55,016 nt of DNA from an uncultured Ruminococcus sp. (GTDB taxonomy: Bacteria > Bacillota > Clostridia > Oscillospirales > Ruminococcaceae). Under the pieces are notes generated by a model. That model did no database searches and was not told where the DNA came from. It saw nothing but the letters and a program-made list of their open reading frames with translations. This document shows, in pieces, positions 16,728 to 44,938 of the stretch (the stretch's first letter is position 1; every line of letters begins with the position of its first letter). Location: assembly GCA_902780695.1 (NCBI GenBank), contig CACZGM010000002.1, positions 1 to 55,016 of the forward strand, given 5' to 3'. The translations under genes were made by a program, and so were the position numbers.

Positions 16728-17495
16728 TTATCTGTCCGGTGCGGAAGCGGAAATGTCGGAAACGTCCACCCAGCTGAAAAGCTCCTTCAGCAGAACTCTG
16801 CCCTCTCCGGCTTTTGAGATCGTATATACCCGGCTTTTTCCCTTGAATCTTGCCGGTATCGCCACACCTGTCCCCGAGTAGCATCTTGCCGAACTGCGGA
16901 TATAGACCCTGTCCCCTGCGGAAAAGGATCTTCCGGGCTTAGCCGGTGCCGCTGCCGGGTAGGAGATATACGGACACTCAAACCAGTATTCCCAGCCGAA
17001 ATCTCCGAGCCCCGAAAGCACAACACCGTCGCCTCTCGCGCTCAGCGTACATTCGATAACATTGCCGTTTCCGGCGTAGATTCCGACGTGCGGACTGCTT
17101 CCGCAGTAAAGGATAACACCCGGTCGCTCCGGGAGCGTGTCGATACTGCCCTTTACCCTTGCCTGCGAGAACATCATACCCGCGTTCACGTCCGGAAAAC
17201 CCGCCGCGCCGTATTTTGGGGAACCCGTGCCTCCGTCCGGTCTGCCGCTCCAGTAGTATGACTTTATCAGCCCCACACAGTCGCAGCCGTAATATCCGCT
17301 TTCTGCAAGCTCTTCAAGCTGTCTGTAACGTGTGTCCGTGTAGCCTGTCCCCGTCTTTGTACCGTATATCCGGCGGAGCTGCGCGATATATGCCGGAGTT
17401 ATCCGGCGCATTATACCGCCCCACATATAAGCTGTATCGAGCGCAAGCGCCTTCTCCGCGTGCTTCACAAGTCCCTCAGCAGTGTAGATCCCCAT
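16728..17495 (-). CDS. Phage endolysin, NlpC/P60 peptidase with SH3-like tail
   Basis: This 255-residue cell-wall hydrolase has an NlpC/P60 core with catalytic cysteine in YYGCDCVGLIK and histidine in PHVGIYAG. The C-terminal part (about 190-250) looks like an SH3b-type wall-binding domain. The start at 17495 follows AGGAGG by nine bases and overlaps the end of the holin gene, so a longer reading to 17552 is rejected. It is the last gene of the operon and should release particles by cleaving peptidoglycan stem peptides. Confidence 0.88.
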   Translation of the reverse strand: MGIYTAEGLVKHAEKALALDTAYMWGGIMRRITPAYIAQLRRIYGTKTGTGYTDTRYRQLEELAESGYYGCDCVGLIKSYYWSGRPDGGTGSPKYGAAGFPDVNAGMMFSQARVKGSIDTLPERPGVILYCGSSPHVGIYAGNGNVIECTLSARGDGVVLSGLGDFGWEYWFECPYISYPAAAPAKPGRSFSAGDRVYIRSSARCYSGTGVAIPARFKGKSRVYTISKAGEGRVLLKELFSWVDVSDISASAPDR

Positions 17496-17808
17496 TGCCG
17501 CTGTCCTCCTTTCCGCCTTCCTGTCCGCCGAGCATATCTCCGAGCGTTTCAAGCGCCGTGTCCACCCACGCGGAAAACACCCGGAACGGAAGTACAGCCG
17601 CTATCAGCGGGAACTTCCCGCAGAACATATCATACACCGCACGGAGCTTTATCTGCCCTGTTTTTCCGCCGAGCAGCTTCTCGGCATACGCCACGGCGAA
17701 TTTGAGCCATTCCGCGATACGCCCGCGCTCGTTTACCGCGAGATATACCGCAGAAGCGAGAGCGGCAGCCGCTCCCGCAATGATCGGAATTAATTCGTTT
17801 ATCTGCAT
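17476..17808 (-). CDS. Phage holin, LLH-like
   Basis: This 110-residue protein has one N-terminal membrane helix (about 5-26), followed by an amphipathic region with WLKFAVAYAEKLLGG, which resembles the LLH family of phage holins. It lies between XhlA and endolysin, the expected lysis position. GGAGG sits five bases before ATG. The C-terminal tail is charged and overlaps the endolysin start. Confidence 0.78.
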   Translation of the reverse strand: MQINELIPIIAGAAAALASAVYLAVNERGRIAEWLKFAVAYAEKLLGGKTGQIKLRAVYDMFCGKFPLIAAVLPFRVFSAWVDTALETLGDMLGGQEGGKEDSGNGDLHC

Positions 17809-17809
17809 T

Positions 17810-18094
17810 TCACCCTCCGAAAATGCGCGAAAAAAGCACTGTGCCGATACCGCCTGCGAAAGCGCCGATAACCGCCGCTGCCGCGGATTCCCATCGTCTG
17901 GCGGGACGGCTCTCGATATCGGTGACCTTCCTGTCGATACGGTTCATATCCGAACGCATCTGTTTCAGCTCGACGACCACTTCTCTTATAGAAGCAACTA
18001 TGTCGTCTATCCTGTCAACGCGTCCGCTCAGATTCTCAAGACTGTTTTCGGCAGCCGTTATCCGTTCGCGCAGTTTAACATCGTTCTCGTCCAT
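17810..18094 (-). CDS. XhlA-like haemolysin / holin accessory protein
   Basis: This 94-residue protein has an N-terminal coiled coil (about 5-60, heptads around LENLSGRVDRIDDIV) and one C-terminal membrane helix (about 69-92). This matches XhlA, the small lysis helper of PBSX-type phages. Its ATG overlaps the stop of the gene before it (TAATG), and it precedes the holin by one base. Confidence 0.8.
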   Translation of the reverse strand: MDENDVKLRERITAAENSLENLSGRVDRIDDIVASIREVVVELKQMRSDMNRIDRKVTDIESRPARRWESAAAAVIGAFAGGIGTVLFSRIFGG

Positions 18095-18753
18095 TACATT
18101 TCTTCTTCCTCTTCGTCCGAAACGGGGAAAGCGAACCAGAATCCTGTTGTGCTGTACATCATCGCAAGTCTGAATATCTCGCCGTCAAAGCTCACAAGCT
18201 GATTATGTTGAGAAGACGATTCTGTGCCGAACGCGATATACAGGCTCGGGAAGAGCTTACCGTTGATGACATCGGGGTATTTCGTGATGCAGTATTTTCT
18301 TCCGTTTGTGTAAACCGGGAACCTCAGCTCCGCACGGCTTTCAAGTGTCGGTGAACCAACATACGCCACTGAATCACCGGAGTCGTGAAACAGAATCCCG
18401 ACATTGTCCTCGTTCAGAGCATATATAAAACATGTGTATGACTGTCCAAGGTCAAGGAATGTAACGGTCTCGTCAGTGCTTTTGTGACATCTTATAGTCC
18501 GCCCGCTGGCGAACCCATAACTTCCAATAAAGTCAATGATTGTATTGCCGTTGAAAAAGCTCTCCATACGGCATGTCGTGCTTCCCGTATAAAGAAAGCG
18601 TATGCCCATTGTATGCTGCGTGTCGCAGTAAACGGTATATCCGTCCCTGTACCAGCCTGTAAGTGTTTCGATCGCGGACATAAGCAGCTCGATGCAGTCT
18701 GCCGCAGTCCCCGAAGGAATGACTATGCTCTGTTCATTCAGTGTGTGTGCCAT
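18094..18753 (-). CDS. Phage tail-region protein of unknown function
   Basis: I do not recognise this 219-residue protein. It is soluble, rich in Thr/Ser/Tyr and beta-prone, and ends with an acidic tail of five glutamates and Met. The start MAHTLNEQSIV at 18753 overlaps the preceding stop (TAATG), with GGGAGG upstream. Its place between the fibre cassette and lysis genes suggests a host-contact or fibre accessory protein. Confidence 0.7.
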   Translation of the reverse strand: MAHTLNEQSIVIPSGTAADCIELLMSAIETLTGWYRDGYTVYCDTQHTMGIRFLYTGSTTCRMESFFNGNTIIDFIGSYGFASGRTIRCHKSTDETVTFLDLGQSYTCFIYALNEDNVGILFHDSGDSVAYVGSPTLESRAELRFPVYTNGRKYCITKYPDVINGKLFPSLYIAFGTESSSQHNQLVSFDGEIFRLAMMYSTTGFWFAFPVSDEEEEEM

Positions 18754-18983
18754 TATAAAGCTGTACCTCCCGCTCTTGCGTAATTCACTGCCGGCATCGC
18801 GGCAAAGCATATACCGTTTACGAATACCGGCTCCTTCTGTTTTGCCGCGCCCGTTATTGCCGAGCCCGTGCGGTCATGCGCCGTGAAACCTTCGAGAAGC
18901 GACTCCGGAGTCACGGTGTCCCCGGTAAGGTCAAGTCTTACCGTATTTCCTGTCACGACCTTGTTTACATTAAGTTCATTCAT
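18753..18983 (-). CDS. Small phage tail-fibre-like protein
   Basis: This 76-residue protein contains VTPESLLEGFTAHDRTGSAITG, a pattern often seen in small repeats of Firmicutes phage tail and fibre proteins. GGGAGG precedes the start. It overlaps the genes on both sides by a few bases and is part of the tail-tip module. No enzyme motif is seen. Confidence 0.7.
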   Translation of the reverse strand: MNELNVNKVVTGNTVRLDLTGDTVTPESLLEGFTAHDRTGSAITGAAKQKEPVFVNGICFAAMPAVNYARAGGTAL

Positions 18984-19212
18984 CTGTCCGACCTCCCACG
19001 GTGAGAGTTATACCGCCCGCATCATTCGGCTGCTCGGTCAGCGGTACAGCCTCCACCGTCACATTGTCCGTCATACGATAGTTCTTTGTCCGCAGTATCA
19101 CCGGCCTGCCGAGCTGCGGGACCACGGTATATTCTCCCGTGTATTCCGGCATTATGCCGATCTGCGCGTTTATTCTTCCCTCACCGCCGACAAGTACGTT
19201 TATTCTGTCCAT
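18976..19212 (-). CDS. Small phage tail-module protein
   Basis: A 78-residue protein with MPEYTGEYTVVPQLG and KNYRMTDNVTVEAVPL. Such 'EYTGEY.V.P....T..KRMTDNVTV' patterns recur in small tail-tip proteins of Firmicutes phages. It likely forms a small beta domain. It overlaps the next gene by eight bases. Confidence 0.7.
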   Translation of the reverse strand: MDRINVLVGGEGRINAQIGIMPEYTGEYTVVPQLGRPVILRTKNYRMTDNVTVEAVPLTEQPNDAGGITLTVGGRTDE

Positions 19213-19219
19213 ACCATCC

Positions 19220-19558
19220 CTACCTTATCTCAAAGCGTGCTTCTTCCGGTACGCCGGCAAGCGTATCGCAGTCCCTGCTGCCCCTCGCCGTAAGAGTATA
19301 AAAATACCCGCCGAACGGTATGTCCGTGTCCTCCGGCATAAGGCTGAAAATCAGCGTGCCGTCGGGGAACTGGTCAAAGCCTGTGAGCGTCTTTGATATT
19401 GCACTTTCCTCTCCCCTCACCGGAAAGACATCGAGGGTGATGCGTGTCGAGTCCGGAAATATAACGGTGTCACCCGTGTCCCTGTCCGTGAACACAAACG
19501 GTATATCCGCCCTGTCCCCCCTCGGCACGGTTATGTTGCAGCCGTCTGTTATATACAT
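19220..19558 (-). CDS. Phage baseplate-like protein (BppU N-terminal-like)
   Basis: A 112-residue protein starting ITDGCNITVPRGDRADIPF and continuing with alternating beta strands. This resembles the N-terminal domain of phage upper baseplate proteins, which binds the tail and presents fibres. GGAGG lies five bases before ATG. The assignment is by pattern only. Confidence 0.6.
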   Translation of the reverse strand: MYITDGCNITVPRGDRADIPFVFTDRDTGDTVIFPDSTRITLDVFPVRGEESAISKTLTGFDQFPDGTLIFSLMPEDTDIPFGGYFYTLTARGSRDCDTLAGVPEEARFEIR

Positions 19559-19570
19559 TCTGACCTCCTC

Positions 19571-21706
19571 CTATTTTATCAGCACTTCAATGTGCGTTTC
19601 ATCAAGCCTTTTCAGCATCTTCACGCCGGTATTGCGGAATGTGACATGACCGATGCCGTTTCTTGCGGAAACGAACCCGCCTGCTCTGCAGCTCCCGTCA
19701 TCGACGACAACGAGCCTGCCGACAAGTCCCACCGGCGACCACTCTTTTCGCTGCGAACGCGGAACGTATTCCCTGCCGCTGTCGAAATCATCGGAAAGCA
19801 CCTGCTCACCGTCTTCGTCAAGCTGTACAGTGCCGAAGATATCCTTTTTGTATCTTCCCTGCCAGTACAGTTCAAAGTCGTTGCCCGTCACCGACGGATT
19901 GGCGGAAACAATGCCGTCGATATCGTCACCGTCCGCAAGCCGTATAAGATCACCGTCAAGGGACACGAGCCTTCCGCGCCTGTCCTCATCTTCGGGATTG
20001 CCGTCCGCCCACTCGAAGTATTCCGCATAGTCGGCACCGTTTGTCATATATGCCGTCGCATACATATATCCGTTCGACGATATAACCGCCGAAACGTTAT
20101 TGCTGCCGACATAGAACACATAGCCGGGCTTCTGCGAAGTATCGACTCCGTACCCGCATACGAGAGAGTAGGACGAGTTTATCAGGTGATCGTTGCCCGC
20201 GACAACATTGTTGTTCCCCACGACGGTGTTTCCGTAGCCGACGACCGCGTTGTACGCTCCGCCTACCGTGTTGTGGGAGCCGGCGATCATGTGTCCCGCG
20301 CCGGAAAACTCATTGTAGTTTCCGTGTACTATGCTGTAATTATCGTTTGTGCCGGAGTTGTTTGCTCCGCCAACATTTGTGTAGCCGCAGTTTTCAAGCG
20401 TGTTAAGCTCGCCCTCAAGATGATTGCACCCGCCGCCTGTGCCGATGATCCTGTTCGCCCAACCGGATCCGGTGTAGGTATTGAAATTCTCGTTCCTGTT
20501 GCCGAGGTCTTCTCCGACGCCCGGCCTTATCGCGTCTATGCGCTTCGTGGTCTGCGTTCGTACCTCCGACGCTGCGCCCGGTGACGAGCCGGGAGCAATA
20601 GACCCGCAGCACTCCGCTGCCGTGCAGATCACATCGTGGTAATTGCGGTAGCGCCATTCATAAGACGTGACAACGCCGATAATGCCGCTTCGCTGATCCA
20701 CGTCCCCACCGGTGAACATAAGCGCGTCGCCCGGGTCAATAGCCGGGTCTCCCATAATCCTCGCCCGGACTCCGCGCTGCATGAATGTCTTGATATAGTC
20801 GAGCCAGTCCTCGTTCGCGTTTTCGCATACCGCGGCTGTCTTACCGGCGAGCAGCGGGTTCTTTTCGAGCACATAAGCCGCCGGAGCCGCCTGCTCGTCC
20901 TGCGCCGTGAACGTCGAAACATAGCAGGCGATATCGTTCCCCGCGTAGGCCGTGAGATATTTGATATACGCTCTTGTGTCCGTCACATAAATGCTTTCGC
21001 GCTCCGCAGCGGTGACCGTCCTGCTTGTTATTATCGCTCCGCCCGAAGTACCGTATATCGCCGGTATGACCGAAAGCCGCGAATCCCTGCCTATGACCGC
21101 ATACCCGCAGACGAGTGCCGCGCACCACATGACCACATCTCTGTATGTCTGCATCTGCCTGTCCGTGGCACTTACCCTCAGAGTGCTGTTCGGCATACCG
21201 GCAAGGCTGTTCAGCCCGACGGAGCACCCCACCGCGCAGTCAGTGCAGGCTGCCGCGATAAGCTGCGCGGGCGTTCCGACAGTATTCCTGAATGTGTCCG
21301 ATATGTCGCGGTCGAGCTTCACACCCGCGTCGTAAGCCACGATACCGAGAATGTTCTTCCTTCTCACCGAAAGTATCGGGTCAACGTAAAACGTGCCGAG
21401 CGGCACCTGCTGCTCCGTGTTGCCTGCGGTCTTAAGATAATAGCTTACCGTGACCGACGCGTCCGTAAGGTCGATGCCGAGAGCATTGTCTGTGAAGAAA
21501 GAAAGTTTGAGACAGGCTATGTTGAATGTCCCCACGCGGTATTTTTCGCCGCAGAGCTCCTTTGATACCGAGAGCGAATCCTTGACGAGAACACTGTCCG
21601 TTATCTCGTAAACCGTTCCGTCTGCGAGTGTGAGTGTGCCGTATATCCTGTCCTCTCTCGTCTTTAAGGCGAGCGCGTCTATATAATCCTGTCCGACATT
21701 ATACAT
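19571..21706 (-). CDS. Tail-tip/fibre protein with YadA-like head repeats and a self-cleaving Peptidase_G2 chaperone domain
   Basis: This 711-residue protein is probably the receptor-binding fibre. The first ~375 residues resemble a tail-tip hub. Residues ~410-520 are Gly/Asn-rich repeats (HGNYNEFSGAGHMIAGSHN and similar) like the left-handed head repeats of trimeric adhesins. Residues ~555-711 match the intramolecular chaperone/autoprotease domain of phage fibres (ADYAEYFEWADGNPEDEDR, SPVGLVGRLVVVDDG). Such domains trimerise the fibre and then cut themselves off. The start has GAGG upstream. It follows a DUF6711-like gene and precedes small tip proteins. Confidence 0.82.
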   Translation of the reverse strand: MYNVGQDYIDALALKTREDRIYGTLTLADGTVYEITDSVLVKDSLSVSKELCGEKYRVGTFNIACLKLSFFTDNALGIDLTDASVTVSYYLKTAGNTEQQVPLGTFYVDPILSVRRKNILGIVAYDAGVKLDRDISDTFRNTVGTPAQLIAAACTDCAVGCSVGLNSLAGMPNSTLRVSATDRQMQTYRDVVMWCAALVCGYAVIGRDSRLSVIPAIYGTSGGAIITSRTVTAAERESIYVTDTRAYIKYLTAYAGNDIACYVSTFTAQDEQAAPAAYVLEKNPLLAGKTAAVCENANEDWLDYIKTFMQRGVRARIMGDPAIDPGDALMFTGGDVDQRSGIIGVVTSYEWRYRNYHDVICTAAECCGSIAPGSSPGAASEVRTQTTKRIDAIRPGVGEDLGNRNENFNTYTGSGWANRIIGTGGGCNHLEGELNTLENCGYTNVGGANNSGTNDNYSIVHGNYNEFSGAGHMIAGSHNTVGGAYNAVVGYGNTVVGNNNVVAGNDHLINSSYSLVCGYGVDTSQKPGYVFYVGSNNVSAVISSNGYMYATAYMTNGADYAEYFEWADGNPEDEDRRGRLVSLDGDLIRLADGDDIDGIVSANPSVTGNDFELYWQGRYKKDIFGTVQLDEDGEQVLSDDFDSGREYVPRSQRKEWSPVGLVGRLVVVDDGSCRAGGFVSARNGIGHVTFRNTGVKMLKRLDETHIEVLIK

Positions 21707-21718
21707 ATATCACTCACC

Positions 21719-22084
21719 TCAATACTCTGCGAGACGTGCGCTTATCTCCCACCAGCTCGAATTCTCGCTCATGTTCTGGTGCTGGTAGAAGTCGGACTTC
21801 ACGCTCTCTGCGTACATATCGCAGTCAACATATCCGCCCGTCGCCGGGTCGAGCATACTGACGTGCAGCAGCACATCGGCAAGCTGTGTGTTCAGCGGCG
21901 ACAGCGAGCTTCCCGGTATCCTCCACTTCACTTCGCACACCTTTACAGCGTGCCGCACCCTGTTCCTGTGTACGATCCCCGTCTCGTCGTATCTCCCGCT
22001 GTCCGAGCTCTCGATATCGCGTGTCGTGACGGAGTAATAAAACGGTGTCGGGAGCACCGTGCCGTTTACTTTAATAAAATACAT
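21719..22084 (-). CDS. Small phage tail protein (DUF6711-like)
   Basis: This 121-residue protein starts MYFIKVNGTVLPTPFYYSV and has DIESSDSGRYDETGIVHRNRV. It looks like the small proteins found between tape-measure and tail-tip genes in Firmicutes siphophages. It likely belongs to the distal tail. GGGAG precedes its ATG. No catalytic residues are evident. Confidence 0.7.
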   Translation of the reverse strand: MYFIKVNGTVLPTPFYYSVTTRDIESSDSGRYDETGIVHRNRVRHAVKVCEVKWRIPGSSLSPLNTQLADVLLHVSMLDPATGGYVDCDMYAESVKSDFYQHQNMSENSSWWEISARLAEY

Positions 22085-22096
22085 ATCATTCTCCCG

Positions 22097-22618
22097 TTAT
22101 CCGTAAATGCCGTTGGTGATCCTGTTTCTGCGCATATTGAAGCGGTTCACGGCCTCACCTATCCTGTCCCCGTCAAGCTCCACTGTCGTGGTGATATTCA
22201 CGGGTCTTGTATCGCCGTCGCTGCCGCTGCTTGCCGCGCCTATCACAGTCTCGCTCTTTTCGAGCTGCATGACCTCTGCCGTATGCGATGACACTGCCGG
22301 GAATATACTGTTCACGTTTAACCCGCTCGTCAGCGGCATCACCGCTCCGCCGCTTCTCCAATCCACAAAAGGAAATGATACCGACGGCGTACCCGATGAT
22401 GTTTCCGCAGGCTGCACGGTGCTGTTATGGGCATTCTCACCGTTATATACCGTGTTCACACCGACATTCACAAGACCGTCAAACGCCTTTGTGACTTCCT
22501 CACCGGCTTTTACCGCATCGCTCCTGAATTTCTCCAGCGAGGTCTCTGCCTCCGCAAGTCCGCGGCTGAATTCCCCGGCATCGGCGGATATTTTGATATT
22601 AAGTTCTTCAACTGTCAT
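22097..22618 (-). CDS. Miniature tape-measure-like protein
   Basis: The position, directly after the tail-assembly chaperones, and both ends point to a tail tape measure. The N terminus (IKISADAGEFSRGLAEAE) resembles tape-measure starts, and the C terminus (TVELDGDRIGEAVNRF and then MRRNRITNG) resembles their ends. The protein is only 173 residues, while siphophage tape measures are usually several hundred to over a thousand. The middle has no long coiled coil or membrane helices. It is either a true minimal ruler for a very short tail or the product of an in-frame deletion that kept both ends. AGGAG precedes the start, and the gene overlaps the chaperone by 11 bases. Confidence 0.65.
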   Translation of the reverse strand: MTVEELNIKISADAGEFSRGLAEAETSLEKFRSDAVKAGEEVTKAFDGLVNVGVNTVYNGENAHNSTVQPAETSSGTPSVSFPFVDWRSGGAVMPLTSGLNVNSIFPAVSSHTAEVMQLEKSETVIGAASSGSDGDTRPVNITTTVELDGDRIGEAVNRFNMRRNRITNGIYG

Positions 22619-22934
22619 TTTCAGATTCTCCTGTTTGCTCCGAAAGCCGCCTGTTGAGCCGGCCGGCTATCTTCATAAACTCGCTCTTGCCGCCGTCCGC
22701 CGGCATTTCCGCCTTTCGCCCGAACGCCGCTTCCGGTGTTTTCGGGAACCTCTGCGGAGCGTTGAACGCAGCAAGCACAAGCGCCCCGATGTTGAAAGCG
22801 AGGAGCTCGTTTTCGCGTATTTCACCGGCTCTTGCGTCACGTCCCGCCGCGATAAGCTCGTCAAGCTCTGCCGCGGTAAGCTCCCATAATCCGGAGATAT
22901 CGCGCGTATAGCGCAGAGCCTCACGCCGGAGCAC
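22608..22934 (-). CDS. Tail-assembly chaperone, T domain (read mainly by -1 frameshift)
   Basis: This 108-residue open frame starts at a GTG but continues upstream without a stop into the -1 frame of the preceding gene. A ribosome that slips at 22970-22976 would read on through CGG AGC GGT into this frame, giving a G-T fusion of about 224 residues. This is the lambda G/GT arrangement, where the fusion recruits tail-tube subunits to the tape measure. RELIAVLRREALRYTRD and LTAAELDELIAAG fit a helical chaperone. Independent start at 22934 is less likely because no ribosome site is seen. Confidence 0.8.
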   Translation of the reverse strand: MLRREALRYTRDISGLWELTAAELDELIAAGRDARAGEIRENELLAFNIGALVLAAFNAPQRFPKTPEAAFGRKAEMPADGGKSEFMKIAGRLNRRLSEQTGESENDS

Positions 22935-22939
22935 CGCGA

Positions 22940-23281
22940 TCAGCTCCCGGGCGCTTCCGAAACCGCTCCGAAAAAACCGGATACCCTGAGCGCCTGAGCG
23001 ATATGTTCGTTAAGCTGTGCGAGTGTTCCACCTGCGCTGATAAAATCGTCTATGACGGCATATGCTTCACTGCGTGCGAATTCCGGGCGCAGACCCTCGA
23101 TCAGAGCGTAAACGAACTCGGCGACCGTGCGTATCTCGTCCATGTGCTCCGCTGCCCTGTAAACGGACATTCCGAGCCTTTCCTCCAGTCTTGCAGCCGA
23201 AAGCGCGGTAAGCCTGAGCAGATATGTTCTGTCTCCCGCGGTAAGCTCGGTATATGGCAGAGCCGCTGTGTTTTCTTTCAT
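22940..23281 (-). CDS. Tail-assembly chaperone, G-like
   Basis: This 113-residue helical protein sits between the tail tube and the tape measure, the standard place for the chaperone G. LPYTELTAGDRTYLLRLTA and LEERLGMSVYRA fit that family. AGGAGG is seven bases before ATG. The last codons carry the slippery run GGT-TTT-TTC, and the frame ends at TGA (22942-22940). Confidence 0.82.
   Translation of the reverse strand: MKENTAALPYTELTAGDRTYLLRLTALSAARLEERLGMSVYRAAEHMDEIRTVAEFVYALIEGLRPEFARSEAYAVIDDFISAGGTLAQLNEHIAQALRVSGFFGAVSEAPGS
22970..22976 (-). promoter_or_regulatory. Programmed -1 ribosomal frameshift site
   Basis: The heptamer T-TTT-TTC is in the right register (0-frame GGT TTT TTC GGA). 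After a -1 slip the next codons are CGG AGC GGT TTC, which run without a stop into the 22608-22934 frame. CGGAGC directly after the site can pair with GCTCCG about 35 bases later, a possible stimulatory stem. Confidence 0.85.
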
Positions 23282-23388
23282 GGTGATACCTCCTGTTCAC
23301 TGTTTCTTCTCCGCGCGGCAGATCCGCTTCCCCTCCCGCCTGCGGCAGGAGAGAAAACGGAAAATATGCGGTTCGCGGAAAAACGGTC

Positions 23389-23823
23389 TTATGACCCGCT
23401 GTTATCCCCGCTGTAAACGAGGGCGGTGTTGGGAATGGAGACAATGCTGAATTCCATGACCCCGTCCGCTTCCATACGCTTTATCTTTGTGGCGACCTGT
23501 CCCGACCATGTGAAGTATGTGCCGTCCGGGAACTGCACCTTCTGCGTGACGGAAGCTCCCGACAGCTCCACGGCTCTTGCCGCGGCGAAAGCGGCAGCGG
23601 TCTGCGCCGCCGTTACATTCGGGTTTTCTTCTGCGCTGTTGTAGTAAAAATCAAATGTGAGATCGTCGTATTTGTAAAGCCCGGCAATATAGCGGTGCGC
23701 GGTGTCAAGCAGGTTCGTCACCTCGCGCTTTTCGCGCGTTCCGCCAAGCTCGGGCGTGGACTTAAGTCCGTAAAGGTTCTGCCCGTTTAAGAAATAGGCA
23801 GTTCCCGAAGAAAGCAATTCCAT
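23389..23823 (-). CDS. Major tail tube protein
   Basis: A 144-residue protein located between the tail-completion genes and the chaperones. ELGGTREKREVTNLLDTAHRYI, KYDDLTFDFYYN and the final MEFSIVSIPNTAL fit a siphophage tail-tube beta sandwich. The start at 23823 has GGAGG upstream, and an in-frame ATG five codons earlier is rejected because it overlaps that site. The 100-base spacer after it contains a small GC-rich inverted repeat (near 23336-23354). Confidence 0.75.
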   Translation of the reverse strand: MELLSSGTAYFLNGQNLYGLKSTPELGGTREKREVTNLLDTAHRYIAGLYKYDDLTFDFYYNSAEENPNVTAAQTAAAFAAARAVELSGASVTQKVQFPDGTYFTWSGQVATKIKRMEADGVMEFSIVSIPNTALVYSGDNSGS

Positions 23824-23886
23824 ACTTCTCCTCCTCAATAATAGTCGTCAAGCTGTGATGAGACTTTTTAAGCTATGTTAACGCCG

Positions 23887-24000
23887 CGGGGCGTTCCCCG
23901 CCGCGAGCCGGCTGCGTAAGCCGGTGCCGTCTGCACAATGCAGGATGCATTGGCAGTGGTCACCAAAAGCGCACACGATGTGCGCATAAAAAGTGACCAC
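23887..24000. repeat. Cluster of four consecutive hairpins between tail genes
   Basis: Inverted repeats follow one another: CGGGG/CCCCG (23887-23900), CCGGCT/AGCCGG (23908-23924), CAATGCA/TGCATTG (23936-23952), and a nested pair where GTGGTCAC/GTGACCAC (23956-24000) encloses GCGCACA/TGTGCGC. No convincing ORF covers it. It interrupts an otherwise tightly packed operon and could be a structured RNA, an RNA-processing site or a small mobile palindromic element. Confidence 0.65.
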
Positions 24001-24031
24001 AGAAAGACAAAAGCGCGAAGGCGCCGCTGCA

Positions 24032-24388
24032 CTACAGCGACACTGTTCTGCCGGTAGCTTCATCTACACCGAAGCGGTACCTCATGCACATTCTCGGCAC
24101 CTTCTCATCCGTGATGAGCTGTGAAAAGCTGCGCTTAAGACCCCTTTCCGCGAGAGCGGCGTTTACCTGCAAAGCAAGTCCGCGGACGTTTTCGGCAGTG
24201 CCGGCGTAAATGTCCGTCTGCATTGTAATGATGCTGTATCTGTCTCTGCCGCTTAAAATAACGGCGGAAGAGTTGCCGAGCTCGGAGAGGACGATGCACG
24301 GCAGCGGAACATCATGATCTGCAAACGACAGTTCAACATCGGCTATCTCACCGAGAATATCCGCAATAACAGGTAAATAATCCTTCAT
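24032..24388 (-). CDS. Tail completion/terminator-like protein
   Basis: A 118-residue protein with PVIADILGEIADVELSFAD and SGRDRYSIITMQTDIYAGT, the pattern of small siphophage tail-terminator proteins that cap the tail tube. The start at 24388 is set by GGGAGG. Position between the gp10-like gene and tail tube agrees. Confidence 0.72.
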   Translation of the reverse strand: MKDYLPVIADILGEIADVELSFADHDVPLPCIVLSELGNSSAVILSGRDRYSIITMQTDIYAGTAENVRGLALQVNAALAERGLKRSFSQLITDEKVPRMCMRYRFGVDEATGRTVSL

Positions 24389-24389
24389 A

Positions 24390-24692
24390 TCAGACACCTC
24401 CCACAGCAAGCTCGAACACGGTCTGCGCACAGCTTCGCGCGTACTCTGCGGCATTGCCGAGAAACGGCTTGGGACGCCTGTTTATGCCGCCGAACTCCAC
24501 GCAAGGCGCATACGGCACAAATGTACCGATAACAGCCGTGTCCGTATTTTTCGCTCTGTTGTGTTCTCTGCGGAGCGTTATGCTGCGCCTGAGCCTTCCT
24601 GTCCGCACCGGGCAGTGCTCTTTCGCGTGGCTGAACGCAAGCTCACCGAGCGTCATTACAGCCGTGTTTATTTCGGTCGTGTAATCCTTCAT
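24390..24692 (-). CDS. HK97 gp10-like tail/neck protein
   Basis: A 100-residue protein with CPVRTGRLRRSI, PYAPCVEFG and RRPKPFLGNA, the recognisable pattern of HK97 gp10-like proteins at the head-tail junction. It overlaps the preceding gene by four bases and ends one base before the next start. Confidence 0.85.
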   Translation of the reverse strand: MKDYTTEINTAVMTLGELAFSHAKEHCPVRTGRLRRSITLRREHNRAKNTDTAVIGTFVPYAPCVEFGGINRRPKPFLGNAAEYARSCAQTVFELAVGGV

Positions 24693-25003
24693 AAGCGCTC
24701 CGTCCTTACCGTAAGATGCCCCGGATATCTCTCAACCTGCATTACCCTGCTGTCGGGAGCATCACCGAATACCCCTGCGAGGTCGCCGCACTTAACGCCC
24801 GCTTCCCTGCGCAGGATCAGTGTCGCGCCGGAACTTGCGGTCTGCCCTCTGCGCTCGTCGGAGAGCGTTTCCTTTGACGGAAACACCTCCGCGTAAACGA
24901 AGCCGAGCAGCGCAGGGTCGCGCTTCCTGCCGACATATCCGCTGTCGGCAAGAGCGTTTGAAAAGATGTTGACGCGCTTTATCCTGCATTGTGTCAGCTG
25001 CAT
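24689..25003 (-). CDS. Head-tail joining (stopper-like) protein
   Basis: A 104-residue small beta-rich protein with DPALLGFVYAEVFPSKETLSD, positioned between the connector and gp10-like gene, where the head-tail stopper normally lies. The start lies in the last codons of the connector. Function by position and pattern. Confidence 0.65.
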   Translation of the reverse strand: MQLTQCRIKRVNIFSNALADSGYVGRKRDPALLGFVYAEVFPSKETLSDERRGQTASSGATLILRREAGVKCGDLAGVFGDAPDSRVMQVERYPGHLTVRTERL

Positions 25004-25305
25004 TTCACCGCCCCCACCTTTCTCGGATAGTTTTTCAGGCGCTGCTTCATATCGTCGGTGATAAGCGAGGAAAACGACACGGAGATGTCGTTCTCCGTGC
25101 GTTTTGTCTCACCTTCGTTCCCGAGACGGTTGTACATTTCGAGAGCAAGCTGTATCTGCATATCGCCGAGGCGCTCCGGCAGTGTATCCCTGCCGATATA
25201 GTCGAGCAGCGTGTTCTCCGCGTTTTTCAGCAGCATTTCGAGCTTTAGATCCGAGCTTCTGTCATCGGGCGGGAGCAGAACGCGCAGTGATCCTATCTTG
25301 TTCAT
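24994..25305 (-). CDS. Head-tail connector (adaptor) protein
   Basis: A 103-residue, largely helical protein with LKNAENTLLDYIGRDTLPERL and QLALEMYNRLGNEGE, the pattern of phage adaptor proteins that sit under the portal. GGAGG is nine bases before ATG. No portal gene is present in the window, which makes the adaptor an orphan. Confidence 0.75.
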   Translation of the reverse strand: MNKIGSLRVLLPPDDRSSDLKLEMLLKNAENTLLDYIGRDTLPERLGDMQIQLALEMYNRLGNEGETKRTENDISVSFSSLITDDMKQRLKNYPRKVGAVKCS

Positions 25306-25328
25306 AAGGCTCTGCCTCCGTCGCTTTC

Positions 25329-26243
25329 TCAGCTGTTGCTTTCGCCGCTGCCGCCGTTCTCACCGTTCCCGCCTTCGCCGTTGTTTTCGGGCTCGGTGAC
25401 TTCCTCCTCGGTAGGCTCTCTGTCGAAGCATACCGCGATAGCCTTCTTTTTCTTGTCAAAAACAAAGATATCGTGATACAGCAGACCCTCAACGAGAGTA
25501 CCCGCGATACCGGGCGGATCCTTGTGTATCTTGTAGTCCTGGAGCTTTACGGGTGCGGGAGCGCACATCGGGTGAGTGATGATGAACGCCGTGTCCTCGG
25601 GAAGTCTGCGCTTGGGAACCGCGATTATCGCAACACCGTCGCAGTCGCCTACCATGCCCTTGTAGATGACTCTGTCCTGCGCAAGCTCGGTCGCCTTTGT
25701 GAAAGCGTTGTCCTTCTTGAGCAGCTCGATAAAGCTGTTGGAGCAGAACGCCACGCGTCCCTCAACGGGAAATTCCTCGTCCGTGATCGCTGTGTTCGCC
25801 TCAACGAAAGTGGCGTATGCGTTCTCGGAGGAAAGCTCCTTCTCGATAGTCGTACCGGCGTTGTCCGCAAGAACACCGAAACGGTAGGTATCTATCGCGG
25901 GGATTATCACCTGTTCGATCTGACGCTGGAGCGCCTTGCCTGCGTTTCTCACGCCCTCGGGCGAGTCGGACTCATAGGTCTTGTCGATAGTGAAGGTAAA
26001 GGATTTCTGCTGTGTCATCTGCATCGTCTGCACGGTGTCTTCGAGTTCAACGGGCTCGCCGTATCTGCTCATTCCGCCTGTGGGATCATAGTCGTTAAGG
26101 GGCGCGGTATCGAGCGAATATACCTTTACGCTCTGCGCATTGCCGAATTCCACATCGTTGTTTGTTCCTGCGGTAGAGAGAAGACCTCTTCTGATGACCT
26201 CATCTACCTGAGACGAATACTTTTCCGCTAAATTGATTGCCAT
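25329..26243 (-). CDS. Major capsid protein
   Basis: A 304-residue capsid protein. MAINLAEKYSSQVDEVI starts it; KSFTFTIDKTYESDS, ERQIEQVIIPAIDTYRF-type segment, and the C-terminal block from FIITHPMCAPAPVKL to the DPPGIAG region are typical of a phage capsid family. The start at 26243 has AAGGAG seven bases upstream. A Glu/Gly/Asn-rich tail follows residue ~285. The preceding gene is a scaffold. A terminator-like hairpin lies between them, as if expression were tuned. Confidence 0.85.
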   Translation of the reverse strand: MAINLAEKYSSQVDEVIRRGLLSTAGTNNDVEFGNAQSVKVYSLDTAPLNDYDPTGGMSRYGEPVELEDTVQTMQMTQQKSFTFTIDKTYESDSPEGVRNAGKALQRQIEQVIIPAIDTYRFGVLADNAGTTIEKELSSENAYATFVEANTAITDEEFPVEGRVAFCSNSFIELLKKDNAFTKATELAQDRVIYKGMVGDCDGVAIIAVPKRRLPEDTAFIITHPMCAPAPVKLQDYKIHKDPPGIAGTLVEGLLYHDIFVFDKKKKAIAVCFDREPTEEEVTEPENNGEGGNGENGGSGESNS

Positions 26244-26279
26244 GTTTTTTCTCCTTTTCAATAATTGTTTCCGGGCAGC

Positions 26280-26313
26280 AAAAAAGCACTCCCCGGATAT
26301 TTCCGGGAAGCGC
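26280..26313 (-). terminator. Intrinsic terminator between scaffold and capsid genes
   Basis: On the minus strand GCGCTTCCCGG pairs with CCGGGGAGTGC around a 6-base loop and is followed by TTTTTT. It lies inside the operon, between scaffold and capsid, so read-through would need partial termination or antitermination. Confidence 0.75.
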
Positions 26314-26350
26314 CCATGATGATATGAATGCCGCCGTGCTTTGTTTCCGT

Positions 26351-26833
26351 TCAGACTCCGAGTCCGTCAAGGAAAGCGTCCTTTGCTCCGTTGTAAACGT
26401 GCTTCGGAGTACCGCCTCTGAGGCGCGTGTTCACAGCCGCGGCAACCGCTTCCTCAAAAGCCTTTGTTACTGCGGCGAGACTTTTCCCGCACTCCTCCTT
26501 GCCGGAGTAGTTGAGGCAAGCCGCAAGCTGCTTGGGAAGTCCCGCTTCCGCGAGAATATCGGCGGCATCTGCGATAAGCTCACGTCTTTCAACGGCGGCT
26601 TCTCTCTCCGCAAGTTCCTTCTCGCGCATACTGCGCTTGTGCTCCGCACGTTCCTTCTCGGACATTCCGGAGAGCTTTTCCGCCTCGGCGAGCTTTTTCT
26701 TCAGCTTCTCGCATTCGGCGTTCACTTTCTCATCGAGTTCCGCCTGCGAGTACAGCTTTTCGTCCTTTTCCGCAGTCTCCGTATTTCCGGCAGCTGTCTT
26801 TTCCTGCTCCGGTGCTGTTTTGTTTTCCTGCAT
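26351..26833 (-). CDS. Phage scaffolding protein (DUF4355-like)
   Basis: A 160-residue, strongly coiled-coil, charged protein with KLKKKLAEAEKLSGMSEKERAE, followed by a helical C-terminal domain (GLPKQLAACLNYSGKEE). This is the pattern of phage capsid scaffolds and lies just before the capsid gene. AGGAGG is eight bases before ATG. It is the first gene of the operon: a promoter and attenuator lie directly upstream, and there is no portal or terminase gene before it. Confidence 0.82.
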   Translation of the reverse strand: MQENKTAPEQEKTAAGNTETAEKDEKLYSQAELDEKVNAECEKLKKKLAEAEKLSGMSEKERAEHKRSMREKELAEREAAVERRELIADAADILAEAGLPKQLAACLNYSGKEECGKSLAAVTKAFEEAVAAAVNTRLRGGTPKHVYNGAKDAFLDGLGV

Positions 26834-26854
26834 TTATCTGTCCTCCTTTCGGGT

Positions 26855-26894
26855 AAAACTAAAGAGCCGCGAACGTATCATCGTTCACAGCTCT
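26855..26894 (-). terminator. Leader attenuator hairpin of the phage-derived operon
   Basis: In the RNA AGAGCUGUGAACG pairs fully (with two U-G wobbles) with CGUUCGCGGCUCU around AUGAUA, followed by UUAGUUUU. It lies between the promoter and the scaffold ribosome site. Confidence 0.7.
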
Positions 26895-26905
26895 CTGCAT
26901 TTTAC

Positions 26906-26934
26906 ATATTATCACACTTTTGAATGACATTCAA
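26906..26934 (-). promoter_or_regulatory. Promoter and palindromic operator of the phage-derived operon
   Basis: TTGAAT (26934-26929), 17 bases, TAATAT (26911-26906) with extended TGA. A perfect palindrome TGAATGACATTCA (26921-26933) overlaps the -35 and spacer and is a candidate repressor site. Confidence 0.7.
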
Positions 26935-26990
26935 TGACATCTTTACAAAAATCCGGGATTTTTTCAGAATTTTATTTCGTATCTCACGCT

Positions 26991-27372: not shown

Positions 27373-27458
27373 GCGGAGGTGGTGGAATGGCAGACACGCT
27401 ACTTTGAGGGGGTAGTGGGCGTTAGCTCGTGTGAGTTCAAGTCTCATTCTCCGCACCA
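27373..27458 (+). tRNA. tRNA-Leu (anticodon GAG)
   Basis: A class II tRNA: acceptor GCGGAGG pairs with the 3' TCTCCGC, the anticodon loop TTGAGGG gives GAG, a long variable arm follows, and the T arm contains GTTCAAGTC. The CCA end is encoded (27456-27458). tRNA-Leu genes are frequent integration sites, and here an integrase remnant lies 350 bases downstream. Confidence 0.95.
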
Positions 27459-27723: not shown

Positions 27724-28206
27724 AATAGTATACCCTACCGTTGTCTCCCCGTCTCCGGCATGGTATATATAGGAAAAAGTCCGCAGGGACAACTCCTGCG
27801 GGCATAACATTATTCCTCGTTATCGTCTGCCCTGTTATACAGTCCGGCGAGTTCAAGCGCATCTATCCTGCGCCTTTCCTTGCTTATATGCAAGTAGATG
27901 TTGCTCGTGGTTTTGATGTCGCTATGCCGAAGCCAACTCTTTATACGTTCGATATCCCACCCGAGATCATACAAAACGCTTGCCGCCGAGTGCCTGAGAT
28001 CATGGAAGCGCATGTGCGGCAGACCGGCTTTCTCAAGCACCGCGCTGAACTTGTTCGAGATATAGTCCGGCGGTAGAATTCACCGTTCGGGCGGCTGAAC
28101 GCATATCCGTAGTCCCTGTAAGCGGAACCGAGAAGCTTCTTGTTCTCTTCCGCCTGTGCTTTCAGCTTCAGCATGATATCCCTGAACTCCGGCAGCAGCT
28201 CGAATA
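27724..28206. repeat. Direct repeat, left copy (pairs with 39597-40088)
   Basis: Starts AATAGTATACCC and ends CTCGAATA. It is nearly identical to 39597-40088 apart from scattered changes, an ~8-base indel near 27805-27815 and a one-base deletion near 28070. It contains a minus-strand terminator hairpin (near 27779-27803) and the end of an integrase gene. The two copies frame the STAS island. Confidence 0.9.
27810..28206 (-). pseudogene. Truncated, frameshifted tyrosine integrase
   Basis: This is the last ~130 codons of an integrase nearly identical to the intact gene at 39688-40866. It keeps HDLRHSAASVLYDLGWDI and the NIYLH tyrosine region, but lacks everything upstream and has a one-base loss near 28070 that breaks the frame. 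Homology with the intact copy stops abruptly at 28206. It is a scar of an older, related element or of recombination. Confidence 0.9.
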
Positions 28207-28470: not shown

Positions 28471-29766
28471 ATGGAAAATTTATTCAACTTAGACGACATC
28501 GAGGTAGATGCAGAGCTTTTAGAGCGTGCAAATCCGATCTTCAACACAGCCAAAATGACGCTTTATCAGCTGGCGGCATCGGGCGACGAGGACTCGGCGC
28601 GTATGGTGGAAAAGCTGGGACTTACCGAAAGCACTCAGAACAGCACTACAACAAAGTCGGACGCGGTAAAGCTCCTGATAGAGAGCCTGCTTATGGATAT
28701 GAGATACCATACCATAGAGAAGCTTGCTATGGAGGAGGGCGATTTCACAGAGATTGATCTTCCCTGCGGTTATCTTCCGAAGGCGTTAAGATATACAAGA
28801 GCAGGTCACAGATTCATAGGACTTGATCTTCCGGCTACTATTGCAGAGGTCGAGCCTGCTGTAAACGCTCTTCTGAATGATGAGCAGAAGAAAATGGTGA
28901 AATTTGCCGGTGTCGATGCCACGAACTATGAATCGCTGAAGTCCGCGCTGTCCGATGTGGAGGGAAAAGTCGTTATTACCACAGAGGGTCTTATGGTCTA
29001 TTTCAACGACTCGGAGATCGGCGCACTCTGCGATAATGTGAAGAAGATACTTGACGAACACGGAGGCTGCTGGCTCACGATCGACCCCGAGTGGCTTGTG
29101 GCTTATGTCCTCATTGTACAGGCTATTCTCGGAGACAAAGCGCTGGAAGCTCTCGCGTCAATGCAGAAAAGAGTGGAGGATCAATCGGACGTGGGCGTAA
29201 AGGGCAGCACTCTGGTGGTTTTCCCGAAGCCCGACATTACGGAAGACATCAAAAAAGCTATGGGATTTCTGGCAAAGCACGGTCTCAAAGCCGAAAGAAA
29301 GATCGTTGCAGATAATATGCCCGAACTCAAAGTGTTTGAGAAGCTGAGTCCCGAGCAGACAGCAGCTGTAAAAGCAGCTATGAAGAACAACGCCTACTGG
29401 AAGATAACATCTATGGGCGCGGCTGCGGCAAGAGAGTGCATAGATACGGGAGACATTGCTGAAAAGAATTTTGATGTCAAGGCACAGCTCGAAGGTGAAA
29501 AGCTCTGCATTTCCCTGATAGGCAGGGTCGATTCGCTTACCGCTCCCAAGATACTGTCCTTCTATGAAAATACAGCCAAGGAAAAGAACATAAAAGCAGT
29601 GTCTGTTGACTGCGAGGAGCTTCAGTATATCTCGTCTGCGGGACTTCGCGTACTGCTCATAATGAAAAAGAACTCCGAAGAAGGTATGTCTCTTGAAAAT
29701 GTTAAGCCGGAGATAATGGAAATCTTGGAGACTACCGGATTTGATTCCATATTCTTTGAGAAATAA
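28471..29766 (+). CDS. Carboxyl-methyltransferase-like (LCM/PPM1-type) protein fused to a C-terminal STAS domain
   Basis: Residues ~1-330 resemble the leucine carboxyl methyltransferase family of SAM-dependent enzymes: EIDLPCGYLPKALRY fits the SAM-binding region, and VVITTEGLMVYFN fits the EGLxxYL motif. Residues ~335-431 are a STAS domain with ISSAGLRVLLIM, the region that holds the phosphorylated serine in SpoIIAA-type proteins, and the end block EILETTGFDSIFF. The GAGG site is five bases before ATG. It is the first gene of a cluster in which STAS is fused to different enzymes. The methyl acceptor is unknown; regulation through the STAS domain is inference. Confidence 0.82.
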   Translation: MENLFNLDDIEVDAELLERANPIFNTAKMTLYQLAASGDEDSARMVEKLGLTESTQNSTTTKSDAVKLLIESLLMDMRYHTIEKLAMEEGDFTEIDLPCGYLPKALRYTRAGHRFIGLDLPATIAEVEPAVNALLNDEQKKMVKFAGVDATNYESLKSALSDVEGKVVITTEGLMVYFNDSEIGALCDNVKKILDEHGGCWLTIDPEWLVAYVLIVQAILGDKALEALASMQKRVEDQSDVGVKGSTLVVFPKPDITEDIKKAMGFLAKHGLKAERKIVADNMPELKVFEKLSPEQTAAVKAAMKNNAYWKITSMGAAAARECIDTGDIAEKNFDVKAQLEGEKLCISLIGRVDSLTAPKILSFYENTAKEKNIKAVSVDCEELQYISSAGLRVLLIMKKNSEEGMSLENVKPEIMEILETTGFDSIFFEK

Positions 29767-29827
29767 GATTTTTTTCATTTCACTATCCGAACAGACTCTT
29801 GTTCCTAAGCAATAAAGGAAAGATTTT

Positions 29828-30108
29828 ATGAAAAAATAACCTCAATTGCAATCGCATTTATAACAGCGGCTGGAAGTACAGCCGCAGCTGCCGCTTATGC
29901 TGCAGAACAGGGCGGTAAAACGATAGCCGCTGTTGCAGCGCCCGGAGCCGTCGGGCTTTATGGCTTGGAAGTGCTCAAAGCGTTTTTAGAGGTACCCTAT
30001 ATCATCGATGCCGAAGTTTCCGGTGGTATTACAGACAAACAGATCGGCAAGATCTGCGAAAATACAAGCATCAGATTCTGCGGCAGCCTCAACGCTGTCT
30101 CAAAATAA
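29828..30108 (+). pseudogene. Small secreted-type protein broken by a one-base shift in a poly-A run
   Basis: AAAGGA precedes ATG at 29828. The start reads ATG then six A and TAA, so it stops after three codons. With seven A the frame would continue for about 90 codons to TAA at 30106-30108, giving MKKITSIAIAFITAAG, an alanine-rich signal-like segment, and a short mature part with two cysteines. The intact downstream frame and good ribosome site suggest either a recent pseudogene or slippage on the A-run. I do not recognise the family. Confidence 0.55.
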
Positions 30109-30145
30109 ACAAGATTTACTCGCTGAAGACGAAAGGAGTACAAGC

Positions 30146-31348: not shown

Positions 31349-31423
31349 AAGAAGGAATGTAATAGCAGCATACGATTGATTTTTTGAATGTATATATTCA
31401 CTTGACTTGAATGGAAACCAGCT

Positions 31424-32608: not shown

Positions 32609-32620
32609 GAGGTATGGAAT

Positions 32621-33433: not shown

Positions 33434-33467
33434 TCGGTCCACTTGTTTTTGAAAGGAGTACCGGATA

Positions 33468-40866: not shown

Positions 40867-40874
40867 ATTTCTAT

Positions 40875-40918
40875 CCTTTCTGCCGGCAGAAAGGCATTGC
40901 GGTATTTTCCGCAATGCC
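40875..40918. promoter_or_regulatory. Palindrome and hairpin over the integrase ribosome site
   Basis: CCTTTCTGCCGGCAGAAAGG (40875-40894) is a perfect palindrome that contains the integrase Shine-Dalgarno. Next to it GGCATTGCGG/CCGCAATGCC (40893-40918) forms a second stem. Together they lie between excisionase and integrase and may limit integrase expression. Confidence 0.6.
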
Positions 40919-40931
40919 CTGCCTGCTGTTG

Positions 40932-44935: not shown

Positions 44936-44938
44936 ACC

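What the first reader, a model, noticed from the sequence alone, without database searches (positions are those of the whole stretch)
16728..26934. Self-contained capsid-tail-lysis operon without portal, terminase or protease
The operon starts with its own promoter, palindromic operator and attenuator directly before the scaffold gene. It has scaffold, capsid, adaptor, stopper, gp10-like, terminator, tube, chaperones, fibre and lysis genes, all with intact frames. Portal, terminase, head protease, integrase, repressor and replication genes are missing, and host genes flank both sides. Such a set could build particles but not package DNA in the usual way. It may be a domesticated particle (protein delivery, gene-transfer-like or bacteriocin-like) rather than a decaying prophage, since no frame is broken.
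Basis: partly seen in the sequence, partly recalled or inferred. Interest (0 to 1): 0.85.

Follow-up and report, generated by a model that had tools for sequence, protein, structure and literature searches.

The report
Split-locus gene transfer agent, rumen Clostridia
What looked like a phage capsid-and-tail gene set with no way to package DNA is one part of a conserved, scattered, phage-derived system in a group of gut bacteria: its packaging motor and its likely switch sit elsewhere in the same genome, so the cells probably make virus-like particles that carry pieces of their own DNA.

Summary
The operon at 26833-16728 (minus strand) is real, with intact frames. It is not alone. Of 60 species-level genomes of the genus, 17 carry it (capsid 74-100% identical). 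The same 17, and none of the other 43, carry a packaging cassette on another contig: mini-TerS, TerL and portal (one cassette cut by a contig end). Four more genomes found by capsid alone have it too. The mini-TerS resembles the core and C-terminus of terminase small subunits and lacks the N-terminal part. A third locus, an S24-type repressor divergent from a sigma-region-4-like activator, is in 16 of the 17. Both structural loci share a promoter element, 20 of 21 regions each. Genes are under purifying selection. TerL, portal and capsid each form one clade, sister to prophages of the genus. The tape measure is only 132-201 aa. Best reading: a vertically inherited, siphovirus-like gene transfer agent, distinct from the podovirus-like FpGTA of Faecalibacterium (PMC12946183). 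No particle, packaged DNA or transfer has been shown; a PBSX-like killing role is not excluded.

The parts
26925..26940 (-). tandem 10-bp direct repeats ATGTCATTGAATGTCA: activator-type element shared with the terS-terL-portal cassette on another contig
26905..26916 (-). -10-like TGTGATAATATG after the repeats
   Evidence: position read from sequence
   Evidence: z -1.7
26351..26833 (-). scaffold, 160 aa (DUF4355/Gp46, phrog_172)
   Evidence: 21 of 21 genomes
25329..26261 (-). major capsid protein, 310 aa (phrog_422); conserved start probably at MAINLAEK
   Evidence: 21 of 21 genomes
24994..25305 (-). head-tail adaptor (PF05135, phrog_132)
24689..25003 (-). stopper / head completion protein, 104 aa
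   Evidence: AlphaFold2 + Foldseek
24390..24692 (-). HK97 gp10-like tail completion protein (PF04883, phrog_5)
24032..24394 (-). tail terminator (phrog_78)
23389..23838 (-). tail tube protein (phrog_158)
   Evidence: omega median 0.08
22940..23281 (-). tail assembly chaperone A (phrog_183)
22608..22934 (-). second chaperone-position gene (phrog_2066, unknown function)
   Evidence: position
22097..22618 (-). very short tape measure, 173 aa
   Evidence: phrog_2854 N-terminus; 132-201 aa in the 18 genomes where read
21719..22084 (-). distal-tail-position protein (PF20458 DUF6711, phrog_1194)
19571..21706 (-). tail tip / fibre, 711 aa (phrog_23052; Peptidase_G2 autoproteolytic domain)
19220..19558 (-). 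accessory tail-region protein, 112 aa
   Evidence: matched in 9 genomes; several contigs end before
18094..19212 (-). three variable accessory genes (78, 76, 238 aa)
   Evidence: matched in 6, 6 and 3 genomes
17810..18094 (-). 94-aa protein (phrog_937, named hemolysin)
   Evidence: matched in 7 genomes
17476..17808 (-). holin-position protein (phrog_36029; weak PF09682)
   Evidence: matched in 6 genomes
16728..17498 (-). NlpC/P60-like endolysin
   Evidence: E 0.014, under cut-off; in the operon of 7 genomes; genome-wide matches in 15 of 21
27373..27458 (+). tRNA-Leu(gag), divergent neighbour of the operon; not part of it

Best explanation
The operon is the head-tail-lysis locus of a gene transfer agent (GTA)-like system encoded at three or more genomic sites. 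Locus 1 (window) makes a small siphovirus-like particle with a very short tail. Locus 2 (contig C40: mini-TerS, TerL, portal) supplies the portal vertex and the packaging motor; the mini-TerS has lost the DNA-binding domain, so packaging would start without a specific site and take random chromosomal DNA. Locus 3 (contig C143: XRE-S24 repressor divergent from a DUF1492/sigma-region-4-like activator) is the switch: when the S24 repressor is inactivated (probably by DNA damage) the activator is made, binds the TGTC repeats before both structural operons and turns them on together; holin and endolysin release the particles. SHOWN by sequence: the loci, co-occurrence, co-inheritance, selection, shared promoter element, absence of the TerS N-terminal part, intact TerL motifs. 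INFERRED: that the activator binds the repeats, SOS induction, DNA content, and delivery to recipients.
For: 17 of 60 genus genomes have the operon capsid; the same 17 and 0 of 43 others have the cassette TerL (Fisher 2.6e-15, not corrected for phylogeny). 4 of 4 further capsid-positive genomes have it. The mini-TerS ORF is in 21 of 21; its profile's best PDB match is a terminase small subunit (3zqp, E 7e-4) in two colinear pieces outside the N-terminus. TerL motifs kept, by eye, in the 19 full-length sequences; nuclease domain matches 2wbn, E 2.5e-31. Shared element upstream of 20 of 21 terS-terL and 20 of 21 scaffold genes; among 302 ORFs of 150 aa or more in 27 loci the 24 with the element were all TerL or scaffold genes; 0 in 200 shuffles. 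Repressor-activator pair in 16 of 17 positive genomes; 0 of the 18 other activator loci examined has the repressor beside it, 13 of them from negative genomes. Median omega 0.08-0.32 for the core genes except gp10-like, 0.36; no pair above 0.64. MCP-TerL Mantel r 0.88, guaB-MCP 0.95, guaB-TerL 0.91. TerL, portal and MCP each monophyletic (support 1.0, 0.99, 0.99) with the same prophage lineage as sister. Cassette neighbourhood conserved.
Against: No particle, packaged DNA or transfer seen; nearly all genomes are draft MAGs. Co-occurrence partly reflects shared ancestry. Lysin: read in the operon of 7 genomes; genome-wide matches in 15 of 21, some in prophages and in G015 only C-terminal; the operon ends of G004, G062, G082 and G086 show none by eye. 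In this very genome the repressor frame is shifted near residue 180 of 208; G024's TerL is in two frames; error or decay not told apart. Mini-TerS homology is statistically weak: Pfam Terminase_2 hits in 4 of 18 members, best E 0.001, under cut-off; hhalign probability 22%; the two pieces of the PDB match are weak singly. Tube-TerL distances do not correlate within type 1 (r -0.03, p 0.56). The element also occurs exactly at other places, including before a phage-like replication operon in G011.
Confidence: 0.8

Rival explanations
1. PBSX-like killing particle: it packages host DNA but does not inject it; the tail tip and fibre kill relatives, and lysis releases it as a bacteriocin.
For: Faster-evolving tip (omega 0.25) and accessory genes next to a very conserved capsid and tube; S24-type repressor; PMC12946183 leaves the same possibility open for FpGTA.
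Against: No sheath gene named by family searches; very short tape measure; capsid, TerL and portal are among the best conserved genes, which a killer tail would not need.
Confidence: 0.15
2. Decaying prophage remnant.
For: Derived from a phage lineage; a MuF C-terminal relic stays between tRNA-Leu and scaffold in G011 (63-67% to prophage MuF); frame faults in the G000 repressor and the G024 TerL.
Against: 21 species-level genomes with the same core order; omega well below 1; co-conserved second and third loci; host-like trees.
Confidence: 0.02
3. Phage satellite or mobile element that borrows portal and terminase from a helper phage.
For: A tRNA-Leu lies upstream in 13 of 23 operon loci scanned and far neighbours vary; IMG/VR lists fragments as viruses.
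Against: No integrase or replication gene recognised in operon or cassette; a phylogenetically matched cassette is always present; cassette in conserved host neighbourhoods.
Confidence: 0.03

Closest known systems
FpGTA of Faecalibacterium (PMC12946183; abstract, passages, sections 9 and 10 read)
   Same: Gut Clostridia; two dispersed operons with lysis genes in one; TerS without obvious DNA-binding domain; no replication genes. Capsid proteins of two loci with an FpGTA-I-like layout in an unnamed genus of this order are 36% and 34% identical to ours (L221, L227).
   Different: FpGTA is described as podovirus-like with TerS, TerL, portal, scaffold and capsid in one operon. Here terS-terL-portal is separated from scaffold-capsid, there are tube, terminator, chaperone and a short tape measure, and a repressor-activator locus is linked. 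The capsid tree puts L221/L227 far away. Whether L221/L227 are FpGTA itself was not testable (genomes unnamed).
RcGTA of Rhodobacter capsulatus
   Same: TerS lacking a specific DNA-binding domain (PMC7947584, passages only); siphovirus-like with short tape measure and dispersed loci (recalled). Our stopper model's best PDB match is an RcGTA particle protein (6tba), a fold shared with phage necks.
   Different: Not the same origin: SPP1-type portal, Terminase_3 TerL and DUF4355 scaffold from a Clostridia prophage lineage.
SPP1-like prophages of the same genus (G000:C91 and C8, G066:C59, G071:C33, G084:C35)
   Same: Sister lineage for TerL (57-59%), portal (49-55%) and MCP (62-69%); DUF1492-like activator just before terS, with TGTCC repeats and TAAAAT between them.
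   Different: Prophages have a full-length TerS (PF03592, 8e-42; that its N-terminus is the DNA-binding part is recalled), MuF (6.7e-16), and an 821-aa ORF at the tape-measure position in L139 (no Pfam tape-measure hit).
PBSX of Bacillus subtilis
   Same: Chromosomal particle; named in PMC12946183 as the other Gram-positive GTA-like system; repressor of XRE type (recalled).
   Different: One locus and myovirus-like (recalled); homology of parts not tested beyond the stopper fold.

Membership tests
Gene transfer agent | Phage-derived structural and packaging genes kept in the host genome, dispersed, without replication or integration genes | tested here: met
   definition as stated in PMC12946183
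Gene transfer agent | Vertical inheritance across a clade | tested here: met
   17/17 vs 0/43 (24, 25); Mantel with guaB (46); conserved cassette neighbourhoods (37). In the midpoint-rooted guaB tree G015 falls apart from the other 13 on a near-zero branch.
Gene transfer agent | Purifying selection on particle genes | tested here: met
   pairwise NG86, dS<1.5; small accessory genes weaker (78-aa gene 0.45); no usable pair for the 238-aa gene
Gene transfer agent | TerS lacking specific DNA-binding domain, intact TerL | tested here: met
   homology of mini-TerS weak in statistics (80, 82); DNA binding itself not tested
Gene transfer agent | Particles contain random host DNA too short to encode the system | not testable with these tools
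   needs particles
Gene transfer agent | Transfers genes to recipients | not testable with these tools
   needs culture
FpGTA | TerS-TerL-portal-scaffold-capsid in one operon, podovirus-like | tested here: not met
   split loci and siphovirus tail genes
Phage satellite (PICI-like) | Integrase/excision and mobility | tested here: not met
   none recognised in operon or cassette; integrase fragment lies beyond tRNA-Leu
Defective prophage | Broken frames, relaxed selection, no clade-wide conservation | tested here: not met
   exceptions: G000 repressor and G024 TerL frames

The most novel reading that the evidence does not exclude
A previously undescribed family of siphovirus-like gene transfer agents, arisen once in gut and rumen Clostridia from an SPP1-like prophage lineage, in which the packaging motor was moved to its own locus, TerS lost its DNA-binding domain, the tail shrank, and the phage's repressor and late activator were kept as a dedicated master switch for a dispersed regulon (perhaps with a DUF6291 protein as further member), driving DNA exchange among these bacteria.
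Probability: 0.6. Interest if true: 0.82.

Novelty: new variant of a known kind. Interest (0 to 1): 0.75.

Why it matters
PMC12946183 calls FpGTA one of very few GTA-like elements outside Alphaproteobacteria and the second in Gram-positive bacteria; it saw GTA-like packaging in Ruminococcaceae, Oscillospiraceae and Christensenellaceae but found a candidate operon in only one of four MAGs searched. The present case gives what looks like an independent origin, a near-complete parts list and a candidate promoter code that can be searched in other genomes. It makes GTA regulation in Gram-positive bacteria testable and offers a cause for gene exchange in gut Clostridia. It also warns that a 'portal-less prophage' may be one locus of a dispersed system.

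Tried and rejected
Decaying prophage, satellite and DNA-free particle readings were considered and set aside for the reasons given under rivals. The idea that the operon always sits next to sbp failed: no sbp hit in the other operon loci, several of which end too early, and far neighbours vary. A palindromic operator was not found; the element is direct repeats. No operon protein matches a portal family. A first portal comparison in a wrong frame was redone. Lysin as a universal part failed. DUF6291 as a universal part failed: 11 of 17 positive and 4 of 43 other genomes; of the 8 genomes scanned for the element, G061 and G074 have DUF6291 without a listed site and G002 has none. Rows dropped before counts: TerL of G024 and G007, tube of G083, Dit of G076, TerL of G024 and G007, the second capsid piece of G081. 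Literature was searched for 'gene transfer agent' with Clostridia, rumen, Bacillota, Ruminococcaceae, Firmicutes/PBSX, and tape measure/terminase: only PMC12946183 was close, so 'not described before' rests on these six searches of open-licence papers.
Full report
Observation. The window (contig C2 of genome G000, 3.29 Mb in 153 contigs) carries on its minus strand a 10.1-kb operon from a scaffold gene (26833) to an endolysin (16728). Pfam and PHROGs give scaffold, capsid, adaptor, gp10-like, terminator, tube, chaperone, distal-tail-position and tip genes, the last with a Peptidase_G2 domain; holin and lysin calls are weak. A gene of 173 aa at 22097-22618 matches the N-terminus of tape measures (E 4e-6), so the tail would be very short. 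The 104-aa protein after the adaptor had no family; an AlphaFold2 model from 16 sequences (pLDDT 81) matches neck proteins of RcGTA, phages and PBSX, two of them at E below 0.001.

Relatives. The capsid protein found 20 loci among species-level genomes, most of them Ruminiclostridium-labelled or unnamed Clostridia MAGs from rumen and gut, and 6 loci in IMG/VR, of which 3 were close. With the window this makes 21 genomes. The core order, scaffold to tip, is the same wherever it could be read; accessory genes after the tip vary. TerL, portal and prophage TerS have no tblastn hit in any of the 21 operon loci, which hold 0.4 to 13 kb upstream of the scaffold; only G011 has a MuF relic there. ORFs upstream, listed for 11 loci, read by eye as host or other mobile genes. 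A divergent tRNA-Leu lies upstream in 13 of 23 operon loci, window included (7 gag, 6 cag). The tape measure is 132-201 aa in the 18 genomes where it was read; the ORF at that position in a related prophage has 821 aa (L139), but Pfam does not name it a tape measure.

The missing genes. A portal family search over 60 genomes of the genus hit 45 of them, prophages included. Among the hits is a group of similar length and match range in 16 of the 17 capsid-positive genomes; prophage portals (G031, G000:C91, G066:C59) score even higher against the family, so the group is recognised by its cassette and tree. Its members lie in an isolated cassette flanked by host genes: a small ORF, TerL and portal. 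With that TerL as query over the same 60 genomes, 17 have it (15 at 62-100% identity, G024 and G007 by pieces of 70-74%), and these are the same 17 that have the operon capsid at 74-100%, on a contig other than the operon's. In G011 the operon is at 377 kb of a 619-kb contig and the cassette at 125 kb of a 212-kb contig. The other 43 genomes have neither; their best hits are at most 31% (capsid) and 44% (TerL). Extra copies at 62-66% (capsid: G000, G066, G071) and 57-59% (TerL: G000, G066, G084) sit in prophage-type loci on broken contigs. Type-2 TerL (60-64%) comes near that prophage range, so its class rests on context and on the tree. Four further genomes known only from their capsid all have the cassette (60-76%). 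Of 21 genomes TerL is full length in 19; G007 is cut by a contig end (its portal was not found) and G024 reads in two frames.

Mini-TerS. An ORF of one conserved family lies before TerL in all 21 genomes, 65-73 aa in the 18 extracted. It aligns with the C-terminal and, more loosely, middle parts of the prophage TerS and lacks its N-terminal region. A profile of 18 members has a terminase small subunit as best PDB match (3zqp, E 7e-4) in two colinear pieces, residues 81-99 and 123-161, each weak on its own. Single-member Pfam Terminase_2 hits are weak (4 of 18, best 0.001, below cut-off), and hhalign against two prophage TerS gives 22% probability over 36 C-terminal columns. The position before terL and the colinear match make TerS the best reading. 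[quoted passage not shown] TerL keeps GGRGS(C/S/G)KSS, the (Y/F)EE motif and three acidic nuclease motifs in the 19 sequences, read by eye (motif names recalled); Pfam Terminase_3 2e-32 and PDB 2wbn 2.5e-31.

Shared control. Upstream of both loci lies TGTC(A/C)TTG(A/T)(A/T)TGTC followed by a -10-like stretch: 20 of 21 cassettes (the G086 region was cut short) and 20 of 21 scaffolds (not G004). Among 302 mechanically called ORFs of 150 aa or more in 27 of the fetched loci, the 24 with the element within 450 nt upstream were all TerL (16) or scaffold (8) genes; 200 rounds of shuffling of the 42 regions gave none. In 8 genomes the pattern with at most one mismatch occurs 105 times against 19 for the reversed control; exact sites number 2-7 per genome. 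Further exact sites precede a DUF6291 gene in G000, G081, G082, G066 and twice in G011, but others lie at contig ends, where no promoter-like stretch is visible, or before a phage-like replication operon in G011, so the element is not exclusive.

Switch. In a sister prophage a DUF1492/sigma-region-4-like gene precedes terS, and between them are TGTCC repeats and TAAAAT. Searching with this activator and reading the places shows, in 16 of 17 positive genomes (all but G007), an activator at 56-100% to the better of two references, divergent from an XRE-S24 repressor (Peptidase_S24 2e-25). In 8 of the 16 some neighbours are shared and read by eye as polyamine genes. Of the 23 negative genomes with an activator match, 13 loci were examined and none has this repressor beside it; nor have 5 further loci from positive genomes. 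The repressor was not searched in whole genomes, so its absence elsewhere is not shown. That it responds to DNA damage is inferred from the S24 domain. In G000 itself the repressor frame is shifted near its C-terminus.

Evolution. Pairwise NG86 dN/dS medians (pairs with dS<1.5; 3 to 129 pairs a gene, none for g238): tube 0.08, capsid 0.09, TerL 0.11, portal 0.12, lysin 0.15 (6 pairs), Dit 0.16, adaptor 0.18, terminator and chaperone A 0.21, scaffold and stopper 0.24, tip 0.25, chaperone B 0.28, tape measure 0.32, gp10-like 0.36, small accessory genes 0.16-0.45. Tree distances correlate between the two loci and with the host gene guaB (MCP-TerL 0.88, guaB-MCP 0.95, guaB-TerL 0.91; within type 1: 0.47, 0.74, 0.65); tube-TerL within type 1 does not (-0.03). 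The 14 best guaB matches are the 14 positive genomes for which guaB was read in full; in the midpoint-rooted guaB tree G015 falls apart from the other 13 on a near-zero branch. Cassette flanks are conserved: 13 of 14 type-1 cassettes share neighbours on one side or both (names such as murD by eye; FRG by Pfam), and G015 and G022 share another site. FastTree trees of TerL, portal and capsid make the domesticated genes one clade each, sister to the same prophages. G011 keeps a MuF C-terminal relic between tRNA-Leu and scaffold, which fits an origin from a portal-MuF-scaffold phage order; a later recombination with a phage is also possible.

Comparison and novelty. Capsid relatives occur in 53 of 394 genomes of the order at E 1e-20, the close ones counted. 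Fifteen such loci were fetched and the ORFs of four listed; two of these four (L221, L227) show TerL-portal-scaffold-capsid plus 122, 606 and 315-348 aa genes between host genes, the layout reported for FpGTA I, and lie far from our clade. If these are GTAs, GTA-like systems arose at least twice from related phages in this order. Ours differs by the split between portal and scaffold, the siphovirus tail genes, and a linked switch. I call it a new variant of a known kind.

Limits. Drafts, nearly all MAGs; no expression, particle or transfer data. Co-occurrence p-values ignore phylogeny. Lysis genes were not found everywhere. GTA versus PBSX-like killing cannot be decided from sequence.

Noticed in passing
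window 27810-28174 and 39688-40935: Integrase C-terminal fragment (Pfam) and a 415-aa ORF that reads by eye as a tyrosine recombinase, on the 3' side of tRNA-Leu: probably remains of other elements using this tRNA, on the opposite side from the operon.
   Followed up: partly
window 28471-34646: Four neighbouring STAS-like proteins, some fused to kinase-like domains (by eye). The first is 89% identical to a protein next to the GTA portal in G024 (L082:3067-4356) and the second 47% to one near a further lysin on G000:C26 (L234).
   Followed up: partly
window 43373-50098: ORFs that read by eye as a type I restriction-modification set (HsdM, HsdS, HsdR).
   Followed up: no
L022, L023, L024 (IMG/VR): Fragments of these GTA-like loci are filed as uncultivated viruses; L022 carries two tRNA genes.
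   Followed up: partly
L221, L227 (genus g106 of the order): Isolated TerL-portal-scaffold-capsid operons between host genes with FpGTA-I-like layout.
   Followed up: partly
G000:C61, G081:C69, G082:C25, G011:C3 and C7, G066:C67: DUF6291 genes preceded by the shared promoter element, next to an htpG-like gene (by eye) in G081 and G011:C3; possible further regulon member.
   Followed up: partly
MCP of type-1 loci versus type-2 and prophages: Type-1 capsid proteins are 285-311 aa (one flagged copy 328), type-2 354-371 and prophage ones 364-367 aa: a C-terminal part seems to be lost in type 1.
   Followed up: no
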